A stretch of DNA of 36,603 nucleotides, from positions 1 through 36,603 of the forward strand of contig CALSRU010000017.1 of NCBI GenBank assembly GCA_943788835.1. The letters run 5' to 3'. Position numbers and translations under genes: made by a program. Source of the stretch: an uncultured Pseudomonadales bacterium. GTDB lineage: Bacteria; Pseudomonadota; Gammaproteobacteria; Pseudomonadales; UBA7434. This document shows, in pieces, positions 2,614 through 14,405 of this stretch. The notes beneath the pieces were generated by a model. It ran no database searches, was not told the origin of the DNA, and was given only the letters and a program-made list of their open reading frames with translations. Each line of letters opens with the position of its first letter. Position 1 is the first letter of the stretch.

Positions 2614-3867
2614 TTAATAAACCCGCGATTGCACGAATTCTCGAATTCTTTGGGCTGCCTCAATGCACTGTTCTAAAGGCTGGACCAATGCCATACGGAC
2701 ATATCCCGCCCCTGGATTTGCGCCCTCAACTTCCCGCGCTAAATAAGAGCCCGGCAAAACAGTGACCTGCTGCTCAGAATAAAGGTCGGCCACAAAGGCC
2801 TCATCATCACAAGGCGTACCTGCCCACAGACAAAAGCCACCGGCCGGCCTTACGATGGGCATTACTGGCTGCAATAGTTCAAGCACCGCGGTGATTTTTT
2901 GCTGATACAGTTGGCGATTAACCCGCACATGCTCCTCATCACGCCACGCGGCAATACTGGCGGCCTGATGATGCGCAGGCATGGCGCTGCCGTGATACGT
3001 GCGATACAGTAAAAAGGCTTGCATCAGTGCCGCATCACCGGCCACAAAGCCCGAACGCAAACCTGCCAAATTAGAGCGCTTAGACAAACTGTTAAAAACC
3101 AAACAGCGTGCAAAATCATGCCGACCCAGCTCCTTGCAAACTTGAAGCAAACCTAAACAGGGTTCTTGCTCATTGGCATAAATCTCGGAATAACATTCAT
3201 CGCTAGCAATTACAAAATCAAATTGATCTGCTAATTCAATTAAGCGCCGATAATACTCTGACCCAAGCGCAAGCCCCGTAGGATTGGAGGGATTACAAAC
3301 ATAAAATAGCTGGCAACGCTGCCATTGCTCATCACTGACCGTATCGAGCTGCGGCACAAAACCCATAGCTTCAGTACAGGGCATGTAATGCGGTTGCGCG
3401 CCGGCCATCAAAGCAGCCCCTTCATAAATTTGATAGAACGGTGCTGGCATCATCACTAGGGGAGGCAATAGGGCGCTATCGCTTATATTGTTTGCTGGTG
3501 TCGTTGAATGCTTACCTGAGCGATTAACAATACACTGCGCGGCCGCAAACAGAGCTTCTCGCGTACCCTGTACCGGTAAAACCATTGTTTCATGATCAAT
3601 TAAATCGCGCGCGATGCCGTAGCGCTGAGTCAGCCAATCTGCTATGGCGCCACGCAGCTCCGAGCAGCCTTGGGTAGTTGGATAGCTGCGCAATGTCTGC
3701 AAATTGCTAACGAGCGCAGCGGTTACAAACTCGGGGGGCGGATGCTGCGGCTCACCAATAGCCAGAGAAATAGGCACTTGCGCTTTATGACGAACTTGCG
3801 CATTGGCAAGTAACGCACGTAGACGCGTAAATGGATAATCATAGAGCCGATTGAGATCAGAATTCAT
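2614..3867 (-). CDS. dapC: Succinyldiaminopimelate transaminase
   Basis: This is a PLP-dependent fold type I aminotransferase, expected to convert N-succinyl-2-amino-6-ketopimelate to N-succinyl-LL-diaminopimelate in lysine and peptidoglycan precursor synthesis. Visible motifs are VCNPSNPTG (residues 190-198), the cofactor-binding Asp in SDECYSEIY (D223), and the Schiff-base lysine in NSLSKRSNLAGLR (K263). The order map-glnD-dapC is also found in Pseudomonas and supports the assignment over other class I aminotransferases. About 20 polar residues near 117-136 look like a loop insertion before the usual APFYQIYEGAALMAG stretch. The partner gene dapD is not in the window. The next gene, lysC, belongs to the same pathway. 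Confidence 0.93.
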   Translation of the reverse strand: MNSDLNRLYDYPFTRLRALLANAQVRHKAQVPISLAIGEPQHPPPEFVTAALVSNLQTLRSYPTTQGCSELRGAIADWLTQRYGIARDLIDHETMVLPVQGTREALFAAAQCIVNRSGKHSTTPANNISDSALLPPLVMMPAPFYQIYEGAALMAGAQPHYMPCTEAMGFVPQLDTVSDEQWQRCQLFYVCNPSNPTGLALGSEYYRRLIELADQFDFVIASDECYSEIYANEQEPCLGLLQVCKELGRHDFARCLVFNSLSKRSNLAGLRSGFVAGDAALMQAFLLYRTYHGSAMPAHHQAASIAAWRDEEHVRVNRQLYQQKITAVLELLQPVMPIVRPAGGFCLWAGTPCDDEAFVADLYSEQQVTVLPGSYLAREVEGANPGAGYVRMALVQPLEQCIEAAQRIREFVQSRVY

Positions 3868-8847: not shown

Positions 8848-9190
8848 CAAACCTTGTAGCAATTGTGCATGAGCTTAATAAACGGTACCAAGCCCACAAA
8901 CCACCTCCCAGTTCATCACTCACTCAAGCTCTGCCTGCTAGCTTGTATTGGTTCGAGGCTTCGAATTAAAATCGAGAACCACCGCTCATGAGTGGCCTGT
9001 CTCACCAAAGTCACGGAGTATTTGCCCTTCGCGCGGCAACCCGTACAATAGTGCTTATTCATGATATCCGTTAATCCATTACATAGCCCACTCACATTGC
9101 TCACACTTACAGGCATGCCACAGTGCAGTTCAGCCCACAAGCCCATGCTTATTTTTGGCGACGACTTACGCCTAATAACGGGGAGACGTG
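8848..9190. other. 343-bp gap between the GacA-like gene and uvrC
   Basis: No gene is supported. It contains a candidate uvrC promoter at 9022-9049 and the ribosome site GGGGAG at 9180-9185. The imperfect inverted repeat GGTTC...GAACC near 8950-8980 may form a hairpin after the regulator gene but lacks a T-run. A 97-codon antisense frame (8916-9209) is judged spurious. Confidence 0.45.
9022..9049 (+). promoter_or_regulatory. Candidate sigma-70 promoter for uvrC
   Basis: TTGCCC (9022-9027) and TACAAT (9044-9049) are 16 bases apart, about 140 bp before uvrC. The gap after the regulator gene makes an independent promoter likely. No LexA box was seen at it. Confidence 0.4.
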
Positions 9191-11128
9191 TTGAGCAAAC
9201 CACCGCCATCTAACAACATCGAATCCAATGGCCAGCTTGATCAGGCACAGAACAAAGATTTAGCTAGCACAGTTGCCCGCCCAGCCCCAGTCACTAACGC
9301 TGCCAATGCCTTCGATGCAAAAAGTTTTTTAAGCGCTTGCTCGCAACGTGCTGGCGTTTATCAAATGTACGACCACAATGGCGACCATCTTTACATCGGC
9401 AAAGCTAAAAACTTAAAAAAACGACTAACCAGCTATTTTCGCAATGACCACCCAAGCGCAAAAACTAGCGTTATGGTAAGTAAAATTGCTCGTATTGACG
9501 TCACTGTAACCACTAGTGAAACTCAAGCGCTTGTTCTAGAACGGAATCTAATAAACGCCGAACGCCCGCCTTACAATGTTTTATTTCGTGACGATAAATC
9601 TTACCCCTATATATTTCTGTCAGATCACGAATACCCCAGGCTCACATTTTATCGCGGCAGTAAGCGTTCAAAAGGCCGTTACTTCGGCCCCTTCCCTAGC
9701 AGCCAAGCTGTGCGCGAAAGCCTCAATTTATTGCAAAAAGTATTTAAGGTGCGACAGTGTGAAGATAGCTTTTTTAACAATCGTTCAAGGCCGTGCCTAC
9801 AACACCAAATTGGCCGTTGTTCGGCGCCCTGCGTAAATCTGATTGAGCCTCAAGACTACGCAGGCACTGTGCGGCAGTCGAGCCTGTTTTTAGAGGGTAA
9901 AGCCGACACTTTGGGCACTGAACTCACCGCTGATATGGAGCGCGCGGCAGCTCAGCTAGACTATGAAACCGCCGCACAGAAACGCGACCAAATTACTTAC
10001 CTGCGCCGTGTTCAAGAAAATCAATATGTAGAGGGTAACTCTGGCGACATTGATATATTAGCCGCGGCCGTGAGCGCCGGGCATGCTTGCATCCAAGCAT
10101 TATATGTGCGCCGTGGCCGGGTATTGGGTAGCCGCAGCTTTTACCCGAAATCAGGGCTTATTGAAAACCCTGCTGAATTACTCGAAGCCTTTATTGCCCA
10201 CAGCTACCTCACTGGCGGCGGCAGCCTGGGCAGCGTGCCAGCAGAAATCATCACCCATTGCGCCCTCGATAACGCTTGTGAGTTAACCGAGGCGTTAAGC
10301 GAGCGCAGCGACAAGCAAGTCACCCTATTACACAACGTCAAAGCTGGCCGAGCGCGCTGGGTGAATATGGCAAATGAAACAGCCCAACAAAATTTAACCG
10401 CAAGGCTGCACAGCCGCCAACAAATTGAACAACGCTTTAATGAGCTGCAACAAGATCTCGACTTAGAATCACCGCCCACCCGCATTGAATGCTTTGACAT
10501 TAGCCACAGCAGCGGCGAGCAAACAGTTGCCTCGTGCGTTGTATTTGACCGCGAAGGCGCTAAAAAGAGCAACTACCGTAAATTTAATATTGAGGGCATC
10601 ACCGGTGGCGACGACTATGCTGCCATGTCCCAAGCGCTCACTCGACGCTACAAACGCCTACAAAAAGGCGAGGCGGCTCTGCCTGACATCTTACTCATTG
10701 ATGGCGGCAAAGGTCAGTTGACACAAGCACGCGAGGTTTTCGATACACTGGGCATTGAAGGGGTATTAATGATTGGCGTAGCCAAAGGAGCCTCCCGCAA
10801 GCCTGGTTTTGAAACCTTATTTGTCGGCAGCCATGACAATGTAGTACGCCTGCCCTCGGACTCTGCTTCGCTGCACCTCATTCAACAAATTCGCGACGAG
10901 GCGCATCGTTTTGCTATTACCGGTCATCGCGCTCGGCGCGCAAAAAAACGCAACAGCTCACCGTTAGAAGGTATTGAAGGCGTAGGGCCCAAAAAACGTC
11001 AGCAATTGCTTAAACATTTTGGGGGTTGGCAAGAAATTGAGCGCGCAACGGTCGATGATTTGGTTAAAGTGCCCGGAATTAGTAAAAAGATTGCCCAAGA
11101 CGTTTATGCCGCGCTGCATAACGCATAA
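9191..11128 (+). CDS. uvrC: Excinuclease ABC subunit C
   Basis: UvrC makes both incisions in nucleotide excision repair with UvrA and UvrB. Domains in order: GIY-YIG nuclease (GVYQMYD ... YIGKAKNLKKRL, residues 55-80), a UvrB-interacting UVR motif (ADMERAAAQLDYETAAQKRDQ), an RNase H-like nuclease (ECFDISHSSG, LIDGGKGQL, and EAHRFAITGHR with the catalytic His), and a C-terminal helix-hairpin-helix pair (EGVGPKKRQQLLKHFGG). The start is ambiguous: GTG at 9188 and TTG at 9191 are adjacent and in frame. GGGGAG at 9180-9185 sits 5 bases before the TTG, so I chose the TTG. Against E. coli, which starts near FDAKAFL, there is a ~37-residue low-complexity N-terminal extension. pgsA follows 82 bp downstream. 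Confidence 0.97.
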   Translation: MSKPPPSNNIESNGQLDQAQNKDLASTVARPAPVTNAANAFDAKSFLSACSQRAGVYQMYDHNGDHLYIGKAKNLKKRLTSYFRNDHPSAKTSVMVSKIARIDVTVTTSETQALVLERNLINAERPPYNVLFRDDKSYPYIFLSDHEYPRLTFYRGSKRSKGRYFGPFPSSQAVRESLNLLQKVFKVRQCEDSFFNNRSRPCLQHQIGRCSAPCVNLIEPQDYAGTVRQSSLFLEGKADTLGTELTADMERAAAQLDYETAAQKRDQITYLRRVQENQYVEGNSGDIDILAAAVSAGHACIQALYVRRGRVLGSRSFYPKSGLIENPAELLEAFIAHSYLTGGGSLGSVPAEIITHCALDNACELTEALSERSDKQVTLLHNVKAGRARWVNMANETAQQNLTARLHSRQQIEQRFNELQQDLDLESPPTRIECFDISHSSGEQTVASCVVFDREGAKKSNYRKFNIEGITGGDDYAAMSQALTRRYKRLQKGEAALPDILLIDGGKGQLTQAREVFDTLGIEGVLMIGVAKGASRKPGFETLFVGSHDNVVRLPSDSASLHLIQQIRDEAHRFAITGHRARRAKKRNSSPLEGIEGVGPKKRQQLLKHFGGWQEIERATVDDLVKVPGISKKIAQDVYAALHNA

Positions 11129-11210
11129 AATGTTGACGCAGTTAAATGATGAAGTTGAATGATCTCGCGTAATCTTCCGATTGCATATCAGAGACGCTAT
11201 TGGCCGACCT

Positions 11211-11774
11211 ATGGCAAACATAAACATACCCAACACGCTCACCTTGATGCGCATACTGCTTATACCGGTGCTCGTTGGCGTCGTATACCTACCGTATACG
11301 TGGACTGGCATTGCCGCGGCAGGTATTTTTTCGGTGGCCGCAATTACCGACTGGGTAGATGGTTACTTGGCCCGCAAGCTCAATCAAAGCACGCCGTTTG
11401 GTGCCTTTCTTGATCCGGTAGCCGATAAACTCATGGTAGCCGTGGCGCTGGTACTGCTGCTTGAGCAATACCCCTACCCTTGGTTTACCGTGCCGGTGGC
11501 TATTATTATTGGCCGCGAAATTGTTATTTCGGCACTGCGCGAGTGGATGGCCGAAATTGGCAAGCGTACGAGTGTGGCAGTTTCGATTATCGGCAAGTTC
11601 AAAACCACTATGCAAATGATCGCCATTATTGTGCTGCTCACGCAAACGAGCGTTGTTGACCAGCGTATTGAAGCCATCGGTTTTATTGCGCTTTATGTTG
11701 CGGCAATACTCACTATTTGGTCGATGACGGTGTATATGAAAGCTGCCTGGCGTGATTTAAGTGACTCTATGTAG
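11211..11774 (+). CDS. pgsA: CDP-diacylglycerol-glycerol-3-phosphate 3-phosphatidyltransferase
   Basis: It makes phosphatidylglycerol phosphate from CDP-diacylglycerol and glycerol 3-phosphate in the inner membrane. The CDP-alcohol phosphatidyltransferase motif DxxDGxxARx8GxxxDxxxD is complete: D47, D50, G51, A54, R55, G64, D68, D72. Several hydrophobic segments give the usual multi-span membrane topology. I chose the ATG at 11211 ([15 protein letters not shown], 187 residues; E. coli has 182) over a TTG at 11181, because family members begin with this NIPN(x)LT stretch. The ribosome site is weak, so coupling to uvrC is possible. Downstream are the tRNA-Gly-Cys-Leu genes, as in E. coli. Confidence 0.96.
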
Positions 11775-11986: not shown

Positions 11987-12062
11987 GCGGGAATAGCTCA
12001 GTTGGTAGAGCGCAACCTTGCCAAGGTTGAGGTCGCCGGTTCGAACCCGGTTTCCCGCTCCA
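11987..12062 (+). tRNA. tRNA-Gly(GCC)
   Basis: 76 nt with encoded CCA. Acceptor GCGGGAA pairs with TTCCCGC. Anticodon stem-loop CAACC-TTGCCAA-GGTTG gives anticodon GCC at 12020-12022. T-arm GCCGGTTCGAACCCGG is regular. It corresponds to glyW of the E. coli pgsA-glyW-cysT-leuZ order. Confidence 0.97.
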
Positions 12063-12068
12063 TATAAT

Positions 12069-12097
12069 AATCGCCTGCCGCATTGGCGGGCGATTTT
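12069..12097 (+). terminator. Hairpin directly after tRNA-Gly (terminator-like)
   Basis: AATCGCCTGCC (12069-12079), loop GCATT, GGCGGGCGATT (12085-12095): an 11-bp stem with one T-G pair, followed by TTGATTT. It lies 7 bases after the tRNA-Gly CCA. The stem is strong and the T-run short, so partial termination or an RNase processing signal are both possible. It partly uncouples tRNA-Gly from tRNA-Cys and tRNA-Leu. Confidence 0.6.
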
Positions 12098-12154: not shown

Positions 12155-12240
12155 ACAAACTCGGTGGCAGAGTGGTTGAGCAGCACACTGCAATTCCGAA
12201 GCCCTTAACTGGTTAAGGTAAGTCGGTTATCTAACGGGCA
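12155..12240 (+). pseudogene. Decayed tRNA-Cys copy with palindromic insertion
   Basis: Positions 12162-12198 align without gaps to bases 12270-12306 of the intact tRNA-Cys next to it: 27 of 37 bases agree by hand count. The match covers the D-arm (GGCAGAGTGG) and the anticodon loop CTGCAAT with GCA at 12190-12192. The D-arm wording also matches tRNA-Cys of pseudomonads as I remember it. The anticodon stem no longer pairs (GCACA against TCCGA). The hairpin CCTTAAC-TG-GTTAAGG (12203-12218) stands where the short variable loop should be. A T-arm start GTCGGTT remains at 12222-12228, but its partner and the acceptor stem are lost. Most likely it is a dead duplicate; an unusual long-variable-arm tRNA is less likely. 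Confidence 0.6.
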
Positions 12241-12265: not shown

Positions 12266-12339
<74 letters not shown>

Positions 12340-12377
12340 TTTCAAAAGGCCCAACCAAGCCTCACTAGTTAAACCCT

Positions 12378-12466
12378 GCCCGGGTGGCGAAATTGGTAGA
12401 CGCAAGGGACTTAAAATCCCTCGAGGGGTGACCCTCGTGCCGGTTCAAGTCCGGCCCCGGGCACCA
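12378..12466 (+). tRNA. tRNA-Leu(UAA)
   Basis: 89 nt with encoded CCA. Acceptor GCCCGGG pairs with CCCGGGC. Anticodon loop CTTAAAA gives anticodon TAA at 12412-12414. A class II long variable arm is formed by CGAGGGG/CCCTCG. T-arm GCCGGTTCAAGTCCGGC is regular. It closes the cluster, corresponding to E. coli leuZ. No convincing terminator follows at once. Confidence 0.97.
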
Positions 12467-12903
12467 TTTCAATTAAGCTGCAAAAAACGCATCACCCTCT
12501 TTTATTTATTTGCTCTTAGTTAGCTTTCCCTCGGCACTTAGCTTTGAATCAGTCAACAAAAAGTGACCGAATCGGGGCCACTGCAGTTCTCATCAACCTG
12601 CTAAAATGCTCGCAACAAGAGGACTAGGCCAAGCCACACAGAGGCCGTTCACAGCTTTTTTGTACACAAAATAACCACTCTTGAGGCGCTTAAAAAAAAC
12701 GCTTGGTATCCATACAACACCAGTGGTAACATTCGTACTCGTCAAGAGCGACTGTTTCTATCTCCACCCCCTATAGAGATAGAGAACCGCCTTGAAGAGC
12801 GCAAAGTTTTGAAGGGTCACTTTGAACGTATGTGGAGGAACCTCCTGACCATTTGCGCCGGCAGTACTCAAATAACTTAAATAAAATTGAAGAGAGCCTG
12901 GAA
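12467..12903 (+). other. 437-bp leader/gap before the first PEP-CTERM gene
   Basis: No gene is supported. Two inverted repeats stand out. TTTTGT-AC-ACAAAA lies at 12658-12671. TCTATCTC (12757-12764) and GAGATAGA (12776-12783) enclose a C-rich loop, about 120 bp before the downstream ATG. The loop contains CCCCCTATAGAG (12767-12778), which recurs inverted with one change at 13621-13632. No -24/-12 sigma-54 promoter, known for some PEP-CTERM genes, was found. Confidence 0.5.
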
Positions 12904-13575
12904 ATGAAATCTCTGAGTCAATCCGTCTGCATAACAACCGCACTCTTATTCATGGCGAGCCCAATTAACGCTGCCACCGTTACAAAAGTGGGTACCGACG
13001 TCAACTTCACCTACGACGATGCAACCCTCTATGGCGCGGGCTGGGTAGTTGGCAATAAGCTGTTTTTTCTACCAACCGATTTTGAAAATGAGTCGACCGA
13101 TGGAAGTAACCCAGGTGTGGTTACCGACACGTTAAACATATTGGTTTCGCAGAACACCAATACAAGCTTTTTTATTGATTCAATAGAGGTGGCCGAGTCT
13201 GGGGATTACCTTTTAAATGGTGCGGGTAGTAGCGTTGCAGCGTCGCTGTTTACATCGGTAACTAGCCTGACAATAGGCGCCTCACCCACCAATACCGTGC
13301 TAGAACAAACGGGCACTATCAACTCGCCACAAGATGGCAGCACCAATCTTTGGAACTTAACCAACACCAACGACTGGGCATGGGAAAACGAAACATCAAT
13401 ATTGTTTCAAATCCAAAATAATTTAACGGCCAACACGACGGCTTCGGGTGAAACTGCTTTCATCCAGAAGAAAAATGTACCTATCCAAATATCGGTCGCG
13501 ACTATTCCAGTGCCCGCTGCCATTTGGCTATTTGGCAGTGCCTTAGTAGGCCTGGCCATTTTAAAACGTAAGTAA
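12904..13575 (+). CDS. VPLPA-CTERM (PEP-CTERM) sorted exported protein
   Basis: 223 residues starting at the ATG at 12904; an upstream frame to 12832 is rejected because this ATG begins a clean signal peptide (MKSLSQSVCITTALLFMASPINA). The body is rich in Thr, Asn, Ser and Gly and low in Cys, as expected of an extracellular beta-rich protein; no enzymatic motif was recognised. The C-terminus carries PVPAAIWLFGSAL, a hydrophobic span and KRK. This is the VPLPA variant of the PEP-CTERM signal, cleaved by an exosortase, often tied to exopolysaccharide and biofilm. No exosortase gene is in the window. A second protein with the same tail follows, but the two differ in body sequence. Confidence 0.85.
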   Translation: MKSLSQSVCITTALLFMASPINAATVTKVGTDVNFTYDDATLYGAGWVVGNKLFFLPTDFENESTDGSNPGVVTDTLNILVSQNTNTSFFIDSIEVAESGDYLLNGAGSSVAASLFTSVTSLTIGASPTNTVLEQTGTINSPQDGSTNLWNLTNTNDWAWENETSILFQIQNNLTANTTASGETAFIQKKNVPIQISVATIPVPAAIWLFGSALVGLAILKRK

Positions 13576-13781: not shown

Positions 13782-14405
13782 ATGAAGAACCCTCTTATCG
13801 CTGCCACGCTGCTAGCACTGTCGTGCTCGTCTAATGCTGCGCTGGAAATTCGCGACCTTGATGACAACCTTGGCAATGGCTATGAAGGCGTTTACGACGA
13901 TGTGCTTGACATTACATGGTTGGCTGACGCTAACTCGGCAGATGGACAGCTCAATTGGGCTGACGCTGAGGCTTTCATCGCAGGTCTGAACAGCAGCAGC
14001 TACTTCGGCGTGACCACATGGCGGCAACCCACGGCTTCGAGCTGCGTAGGAACCAACTGTGGCAATGCAGCCAGCGACACGGATGATGAGCTGAGCTATC
14101 ACTTTTATCAAAATTTTGGTGCTACAACAGGATCGAACATAACCTCTGGAAACAATGCAGCTAATTTAGCTTTGTTCAGTAATATTCAAAACGATCTTTA
14201 TTGGACCGGGAGGGAAAACCCTAGCGACACCGCTATCTACTTTACCACCGCTTTGGGCATACAAGGAGGTGTGCAAAAGTCGAGCGAGTTTTATGTCTGG
14301 GCAGTGGCCGATGGTGATGTTAGCGCTATACCAGTTCCCGCCGCAGCATGGCTATTCGGCTCTGCTTTGGCTGCACTGTTAGTGGCAAGGCGCAGACACC
14401 ACTAA
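13782..14405 (+). CDS. VPLPA-CTERM exported protein with DUF1566 (Lcl C-terminal)-like domain
   Basis: 207 residues. Signal peptide MKNPLIAATLLALSCSSNA, then RDLDDNLGNGYEGVYDDVLDITWLADAN and NWADAEAFIAGLN ... WRQPT. This pattern is typical of DUF1566-like domains in surface proteins, where a calcium or glycan-binding role is suspected but not proven. The usual WRLPT appears here as WRQPT. SSCVGTNC could form a disulfide. The C-terminus has IPVPAAAWLFGSAL, a hydrophobic stretch and RRRHH, the exosortase sorting signal. The ribosome site lies in the hairpin at 13752-13775 and a strong terminator follows at 14419. It is 206 bp after the first PEP-CTERM gene, with its own leader. Confidence 0.87.
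   Translation: MKNPLIAATLLALSCSSNAALEIRDLDDNLGNGYEGVYDDVLDITWLADANSADGQLNWADAEAFIAGLNSSSYFGVTTWRQPTASSCVGTNCGNAASDTDDELSYHFYQNFGATTGSNITSGNNAANLALFSNIQNDLYWTGRENPSDTAIYFTTALGIQGGVQKSSEFYVWAVADGDVSAIPVPAAAWLFGSALAALLVARRRHH

What the first reader, a model, noticed from the sequence alone, without database searches (positions are those of the whole stretch)
12155..12240. tRNA-Cys relic with a 16-nt palindrome in place of the variable loop
Between tRNA-Gly and the intact tRNA-Cys lies a sequence sharing 27 of 37 bases with that tRNA-Cys in register, including a GCA anticodon in the loop CTGCAAT. The anticodon stem and acceptor no longer pair. CCTTAAC-TG-GTTAAGG sits where the variable loop belongs. 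It suggests duplication of cysT and decay. A more exciting but less likely reading is a non-canonical RNA that kept the anticodon arm for another use.
Basis: seen in the sequence. Interest (0 to 1): 0.6.

Follow-up and report, generated by a model that had tools for sequence, protein, structure and literature searches.

The report
Relic of the original tRNA-Cys gene
Beside the working cysteine-tRNA gene lies the broken 5' half of an older, group-typical cysteine-tRNA gene, whose job was apparently taken over by a different version of the gene shared with another bacterial family; it is a clear molecular fossil, not a new kind of RNA.

Summary
In detail: window 12158-12198 is homologous to positions 1-41 of tRNA-Cys, with GCA in CTGCAAT and a broken cloverleaf. 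But the relic is not a copy of its neighbour. Its best match among 34 order tRNA-Cys types is 34/41 (35/41 for the copy in sister genome G007), against 28/41 (30/41) for the neighbour; at five of five scored diagnostic sites it has a base other than the neighbour's. The intact gene is a divergent type, found in 3 of 5 genus genomes with a recovered tRNA-Cys and letter for letter (74/74) in two genomes of another family. Best reading: the native tRNA-Cys decayed after a foreign-type tRNA-Cys settled beside it. An exact-pattern scan of a collection of 84,980 species genomes found the relic in one other contig, G007's. The relic's 5' half diverges like other non-gene DNA (3/41 against 677/5801). 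The palindrome is not conserved: 4 of 7 bases of its 3' arm differ in G007. After position 41 no tRNA homology beats shuffles clearly. Transcription could not be tested. A tRNA pseudogene with an unusually readable history; modest interest.

The parts
11987..12062 (+). tRNA-Gly (GCC), intact
   Evidence: ARAGORN; Rfam RF00005 71.1 bits; 0 of 76 differences in G007
12069..12095 (+). intrinsic-terminator-like hairpin between tRNA-Gly and the relic
   Evidence: Scan (12 pairs; 2 terminator-like sites found in the region scanned, 1.4 expected from shuffles); fold z -4.29; hairpin plus T-rich tail also found by script in the same spacer of G007, G003 and G001, not in G010, where a 17-base one, shorter than the script's minimum, is seen by eye (letters)
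12158..12198 (+). tRNA-Cys relic, homologous to tRNA-Cys positions 1-41, GCA anticodon kept, order-typical type
   Evidence: nhmmer E 9e-6; 0 of 5000 shuffles; 34/41 to the best order type against 28/41 to the neighbour; present in G007 = L060
12199..12239 (+). degenerate 3' remainder of the relic; no detectable tRNA homology; fastest-diverging of the four spacer segments measured (9 of 41)
12203..12218 (+). palindrome CCTTAACTGGTTAAGG, not kept in G007
   Evidence: letters; 4 of 16 positions differ in G007, all in the 3' arm (alignment printed); 23 such repeats in the window
12266..12339 (+). intact tRNA-Cys (GCA), divergent 'A-type', the only tRNA-Cys found in the genome
   Evidence: ARAGORN; one match each in G000 and G007; 74/74 in G007 and G010 and in G263 and G351
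12378..12466 (+). tRNA-Leu (TAA), intact
   Evidence: ARAGORN; 0 of 89 differences in G007

Best explanation
12158-12198 is the surviving 5' half of the lineage's original tRNA-Cys gene, of the type normal for this order of Gammaproteobacteria. A second, divergent tRNA-Cys of a type also carried by another family (genus g93 of family f41) became established directly downstream in the same pgsA-Gly-Cys-Leu cluster. It could do the job alone, so the original lost its 3' half and its pairing by ordinary mutation. Shown: the homology, the type assignment, the broken fold, the sister copy, the type shared with a distant family. Inferred: that the divergent gene came by horizontal transfer, its direction, and that the relic makes no functional RNA.
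For: Profile and shuffle tests. Both relics are closer to 22 of 34 order tRNA-Cys types than to the neighbour; 12 of 34 are not closer. At sites 9, 13, 20, 25 and 27 both relics have a non-neighbour base; a sixth differing site, 5, was left out because the order is split there. Both relics share five changes from the G298 type: 1, 22, 28, 29, 37. The fold is broken. The 5' half differs at 3 of 41 positions between the species, other non-gene DNA at 677 of 5801 (Fisher p 0.62), and the three tRNA genes at 0 of 239. The genome has one tRNA-Cys by two searches. The A-type occurs at up to 3 mismatches in 11 of 390 order genomes: 3 of this genus, 8 of g93; the gene is 74/74 identical in G263 and G351, between pgsA and tRNA-Leu. 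A-type and g93 variants form one group, support 99. UvrC+PgsA place g93 with G051, which has an order-like gene (62 of 74 to the A-type), far from this genus (G351 too short for that tree). G010, also A-type, groups with G004, G001, G005 and G008, support 92 and 94, not with G000/G007; G001 has the order type. The Cys-Leu spacer of G000 is most like those of G165 and G263 of g93 (0 and 1 of 500 shuffles as good) among 38 compared.
Against: The flank evidence is mixed. G010 and G003, the latter with an order-type gene, come next in the Cys-Leu spacer comparison (3 and 4 of 500), so that likeness may be ancestral; the 40 bases upstream show no clear likeness to G263 or G351 (56 and 406 of 500). 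Blastn hits for G263 and G351 stop exactly at the ends of the gene. An old tandem duplication with lineage-wise loss would also put order type next to A-type. The relic's 5' half (7%) and the whole spacer (11%) diverge less than fourfold sites of uvrC and pgsA (102 of 392, 26%), so some constraint is not excluded. Only two genomes are known to carry the relic, both draft assemblies.
Confidence: 0.65

Rival explanations
1. Vertical version: an ancestral tandem duplication gave two tRNA-Cys genes; one diverged into the A-type, and different lineages later kept different copies. The relic is the lost copy.
For: Duplicated tRNA-Cys genes are seen in this cluster elsewhere in the order: Gly-Cys-Gly-Cys in L086 and Gly-Cys-Leu-Cys in L102; close paired pattern matches in G060, G146, G267 and G320. 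A-type and order type occur in different members of the genus.
Against: The A-type is identical, 74/74, in two genomes of a distant family whose relative G051 has an order-like gene, and at up to 3 mismatches it was seen in 2 of the 142 genera sampled in the order.
Confidence: 0.25
2. Scar of a mobile element that integrated in the tRNA-Cys gene: it left the host's 5' half upstream and rebuilt an intact gene with its own 5' part, then was deleted.
For: Geometry: 5' fragment, then an intact gene whose departures from the G003 gene all lie in positions 9-48 (letters). Partial plus complete tRNA copies at the ends of integrated elements are a documented source of tRNA fragments (PMC9897764, abstract and section 12 read).
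Against: Only 67 bases separate the homologous part from the intact gene, so no element or integrase lies between them. No displaced order-type 3' half in G000, G007 or G010 (0 of 3, up to 3 mismatches). No exact 35-base A-type match in viral contigs; best phage and plasmid-collection relatives are 82%.
Confidence: 0.07
3. A functional non-canonical RNA or operon leader that kept the 5' half of the tRNA, for instance as the hairpin TCGG-GCAG-GTG / CAC-CTGC-CCGA predicted in both genomes.
For: The same 11-pair hairpin is in the predicted fold of both relics. None of the three differences between them (2, 20, 21) falls in those 22 paired bases. The spacer is slower than fourfold sites.
Against: Folding not clearly better than shuffles (62 and 15 of 200 as good). 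Divergence not below other non-gene DNA. The 3' part is unconserved. With two genomes, covariation cannot be judged.
Confidence: 0.04

Closest known systems
Prokaryotic tRNA gene fragments and pseudogenes (PMC9897764)
   Same: Partial tRNA-like sequence near a complete gene; fold lost
   Different: Fragment and complete gene are of different types, so the relic is not a partial copy of its neighbour; no mobile element or CRISPR array is seen between them
tRNA gene set evolution by duplication, loss and horizontal gain (PMC7661048, listing and five passages seen)
   Same: Gain of a tRNA gene making another redundant, with loss of one
   Different: There a duplication was observed in laboratory populations; here an intermediate of replacement seems preserved in the sequence
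Tandem tRNA 5'-fragment units upstream of tRNA-Cys and tRNA-Leu in genus g93 (seen here)
   Same: 5' part of a tRNA, then other sequence, then the intact gene, in the same cluster
   Different: Those units keep 5' parts (about 25 and 56 bases) nearly identical to the intact gene and carry hairpin-rich inserts; their core patterns are not in the window

Membership tests
tRNA pseudogene (decayed tRNA-Cys) | Significant homology to a tRNA gene | tested here: met
   nhmmer E 9e-6; 0 of 5000 shuffles
tRNA pseudogene (decayed tRNA-Cys) | Cloverleaf destroyed | tested here: met
   10.7 (G000) and 14.9 bits (G007) against 93.4; acceptor and anticodon-stem pairs broken
tRNA pseudogene (decayed tRNA-Cys) | Redundant with a working gene | tested here: met
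   Intact tRNA-Cys 12266-12339, the only one found
tRNA pseudogene (decayed tRNA-Cys) | Evolves without constraint | tested here: inconclusive
   Same rate as other non-gene DNA but slower than fourfold sites; two genomes only
tRNA pseudogene (decayed tRNA-Cys) | No mature tRNA made | not testable with these tools
   No RNA data
Xenologous replacement of a tRNA gene | Resident gene identical or nearest to that of a distant lineage | tested here: met
   74/74 in G263 and G351; group support 99; distant in UvrC+PgsA
Xenologous replacement of a tRNA gene | Transferred flanking DNA or a recognisable vehicle | tested here: inconclusive
   Cys-Leu spacer most like G165 and G263, but G010 and G003 are close behind; upstream flank unlike G263 and G351; no viral carrier by exact pattern, phage and plasmid best 82%
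tRNA fragment from element integration | Element or integrase between partial and complete copy | tested here: not met
   67 bases between the copies
Long-variable-arm (type II) tRNA | Variable-arm helix conserved, acceptor paired | tested here: not met
   Palindrome broken in G007 (alignment); acceptor unpaired

The most novel reading that the evidence does not exclude
The relic belongs to a wider habit of this order, in which 5' halves of tRNAs are kept upstream of intact genes in the Gly-Cys-Leu cluster as parts of transcribed regulatory RNAs. In g93 such 5' pieces are fused to conserved hairpins; in the window the piece would serve, or would have served, as a structured leader of the tRNA-Cys-Leu transcript after the terminator behind tRNA-Gly.
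Probability: 0.05. Interest if true: 0.65.

Novelty: new member of a known kind. Interest (0 to 1): 0.3.

Why it matters
It seems to catch an essential tRNA gene, single-copy here, late in its replacement, with the old gene still readable beside the new one; such replacements are otherwise inferred from trees. It also shows that 'duplicate and decay' readings of tRNA relics need outgroups: here the relic, not the intact gene, carries the type normal for the order.

Tried and rejected
Chance similarity: rejected. Decayed copy of the present neighbour: rejected by five diagnostic sites. Functional type II tRNA or other RNA: no conserved long arm, acceptor open, folds not clearly better than shuffles. 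An insertion bringing in the palindrome (an ACG repeat flanks a stretch in G007, by eye): left open, because the 3' part gave no homology clearly above shuffles. Displaced 3' half elsewhere: none in 3 genomes searched. Phage, viral or plasmid source: 82% at best in phages (5 records) and plasmids (9 records), no exact 35-base match in viral contigs; the spacer has no plasmid match. Rfam: nothing over the spacer up to E 10. A weak profile hit (12.9 bits) 256 bases upstream of tRNA-Gly in G039 (L031 and L089) was not followed.

Limits: 7 of 12 genus genomes gave no tRNA-Cys. Three of these have a pgsA locus without a recognised tRNA gene: two end inside tRNA-Gly, and the third (G004) stops 91 bases past the pgsA match, so these look like assembly gaps. 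The order searches drew 390 genomes and the class search 369, the latter with a strict pattern; match lists were cut. The genome-contig scan demanded an exact pattern, does not hold contigs under 3,000 bases and may leave out the window's own genome. Dropped rows: diagnostic site 5 (order split), G351 from the tree (too short), outgroups with too little sequence. Alignments differ slightly between (spacer before the relic 5 of 94 with 2 gap columns, or 8 of 95).

Literature searches: (one search failed). I saw listings, plus PMC9897764 (abstract, outline, section 12) and five passages of PMC7661048. I claim nothing about what is absent from print.

The check mended one statement: I had written that flanks show no likeness to g93 outside tRNA genes; the Cys-Leu spacer does.

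Full report
What is there. The window is contig C17 of a 2.76-Mb draft genome (G000). Genes that I read as uvrC and pgsA (9188-11774; names from my knowledge of the proteins and the gene order) lead into tRNA-Gly (11987-12062), tRNA-Cys (12266-12339) and tRNA-Leu (12378-12466), all + strand. The 203-base Gly-Cys spacer holds a terminator-like hairpin at 12069-12095 (fold z -4.29) and then the reported relic.

Is the likeness real? Yes. Ungapped, 27 of 37 bases agree with the intact gene; the next best place in the window, either strand, has 23. A local alignment of the intact gene with the spacer scores 24, which 11 of 5000 dinucleotide shuffles reach; the tRNA-Cys of G298 scores 53, which none of 5000 reaches (maximum 31). 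A profile built from 34 distinct tRNA-Cys sequences of the order, leaving out the window's own type, finds 12160-12198 at E 9e-6 and the same place in G007 at 3.3e-7. With structure included, the covariance model gives 10.7 and 14.9 bits against 93.4 for the intact gene, with acceptor, anticodon stem and one D-stem pair broken. After position 41 no alignment with either tRNA-Cys type beats shuffles convincingly (G007: 1262 and 553 of 2000 shuffles reach the score; G000: 259 and 205 of 2000).

The sister copy. One other genome of the genus, G007, has the same arrangement, 95% identical over 480 bases. An exact pattern for the relic found one contig in the 84,980-species collection, CAJQKT010000096.1 of an uncultured Pseudomonadales bacterium, which carries the same sequence as the G007 locus. 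G000 and G007 are clearly different species: 80 of 291 and 22 of 101 fourfold sites differ in uvrC and pgsA. The palindrome CCTTAACTGGTTAAGG reads CCTTAACTGATGAAAA in G007 (alignment), leaving 3 of 7 pairs, so it is not a conserved part.

Decay or constraint? The three tRNA genes have 0 differences in 239 bases between the two genomes. The relic's 5' half has 3 in 41, the 3' part 9 in 41, the whole spacer 22 in 203, and all other non-gene DNA aligned in the window 677 in 5801 ('non-gene' means outside the ORFs of at least 150 aa used there and the tRNAs, so some short genes may be included). Fisher p is 0.62 for the 5' half and 0.051 for the 3' part. Against plain decay, fourfold sites differ at 102 of 392, so the spacer as a whole is slower than silent sites; I cannot separate weak constraint on the cluster from local rate. 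The hairpin predicted in both relics is not clearly more stable than shuffles (z -0.37 and -1.50; 62 and 15 of 200 shuffles as good).

Which tRNA-Cys is it a relic of? Forty loci with a tRNA-Cys were fetched across the order and read with five from the genus; they hold 47 tRNA-Cys genes. Genus members G003 and G001 carry an order-type gene; G000, G007 and G010 carry the divergent A-type, letter for letter alike. The relics match the type of G298 at 34 (G000) and 35 (G007) of 41 and the A-type at 28 and 30; 22 of 34 order types beat the A-type in each case, 12 do not, and the lowest has 22 of 41 for G000. At sites 9, 13, 20, 25 and 27, where the A-type departs from the order majority, both relics have a non-A-type base; at 20 that is the majority base in G000 and another common one in G007. 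Site 5 was left out because the order is evenly split there. Both relics share five changes from the G298 type (1, 22, 28, 29, 37), so decay began before the two species split.

Where does the A-type come from? Searching 390 genomes of the order with a 44-base A-type pattern, up to 3 mismatches, gave 11: three of this genus and eight of one genus (g93) in another family, f41. Two of those, G263 and G351, have the identical 74-base gene, between pgsA and tRNA-Leu; the other six have variants at 70 or 71 of 74. G051, of the same family but another genus, has an order-like gene (62 of 74 to the A-type). A stricter pattern gave 1 of 369 genomes in the class, G000 itself. On a tRNA-Cys tree the A-type and the g93 variants form one group with support 99 (74 sites, most other nodes weak). 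UvrC plus PgsA put g93 with G051 and far from this genus (without G351), and put G010 with G004, G001, G005 and G008 rather than with G000/G007. Flanks are mixed: the Cys-Leu spacer of G000 is most like those of G165 and G263 (0 and 1 of 500 shuffles as good, 38 spacers compared), but G010 and order-type G003 follow closely (3 and 4 of 500), and the 40 bases upstream resemble G010's only. No carrier was found: the best phage and plasmid-collection relatives of the A-type gene are 82%, and viral contigs gave no exact 35-base match. Transfer between the families is the simplest account; the greater variety in g93 suggests g93 as source, but direction is inferred.

Most likely history. Native order-type tRNA-Cys in the cluster; an A-type gene becomes established just downstream; the native gene becomes redundant and loses its 3' half and pairing; in G010 no trace of a native copy is detected (no profile hit off the tRNA genes at E 0.05). 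Vertical duplication with differential loss is the main rival. Both make the sequence a pseudogene, of a known kind; tRNA fragments and tRNA gene gain and loss are documented in prokaryotes (PMC9897764, PMC7661048).

A side discovery. In g93 the same cluster and other tRNA-Leu genes carry 5' tRNA pieces fused to hairpin-rich units, upstream of the intact gene. This is reported under Noticed in passing; it does not involve the window's DNA.

Noticed in passing
L139 (G225) 1474-1575, L132, L136, L143, L145, L149 and others; genus g93: A unit of about 75 bases, fused to roughly the first 25 bases of tRNA-Leu, stands in one to three copies upstream of intact tRNA-Leu genes; its core matches in 16 of 50 g93 genomes at up to 3 mismatches. 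Leu genes that I read by eye as CAA- and CAG-type have it too. All 14 units aligned carry CAGGANG at the first site, 13 of 14 CAGGA(U/C)G at the second; I recall this as the repeat motif of CsrB-type CsrA-binding RNAs. In the consensus fold the first lies in a hairpin, the second only weakly; 5 of 30 pairs have changes on both sides, three of them in the last hairpin. Rfam gave only sub-threshold matches besides tRNAs, one of them RsmY (20.6 bits, cut-off 57) in L137. A CsrA-binding RNA built into tRNA-Leu transcripts would deserve its own study.
   Followed up: partly
L123 (G225) about 2659-3230 and L122 (G165, reverse strand): Three near-identical tandem units (G225) and one (G165) of the first ~56 bases of tRNA-Cys plus a hairpin-rich insert at the T loop, upstream of the intact tRNA-Cys.
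   Followed up: partly
window 12069-12095; Gly-Cys spacers of G007, G003, G001, G010: A hairpin with a T-rich tail lies between tRNA-Gly and tRNA-Cys in 4 of 5 genus clusters by script and in G010 by eye (17 bases, below the script's minimum; letters). tRNA-Cys-Leu may have its own promoter; none scored in this spacer.
   Followed up: partly
window 12339-12377; Cys-Leu spacers of G010, G003, G165, G263: A short stretch around AAAGGC..ACCAAGCCT is shared by the Cys-Leu spacers of this genus and of two g93 genomes; cause unknown (old element or transferred flank).
   Followed up: partly
window 12832-13575 and 13782-14405: Two neighbouring proteins end in IPVPAAIWLFGSALVGLAILKRK and IPVPAAAWLFGSALAALLVARRRHH, like PEP-CTERM-type sorting tails (recalled; not searched).
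   Followed up: no
G002, G004, G005, G006, G008, G009, G011: Seven of 12 genus genomes have no tRNA-Cys by pattern; two pgsA loci end exactly inside tRNA-Gly, so repeated tRNA genes probably break these assemblies.
   Followed up: partly
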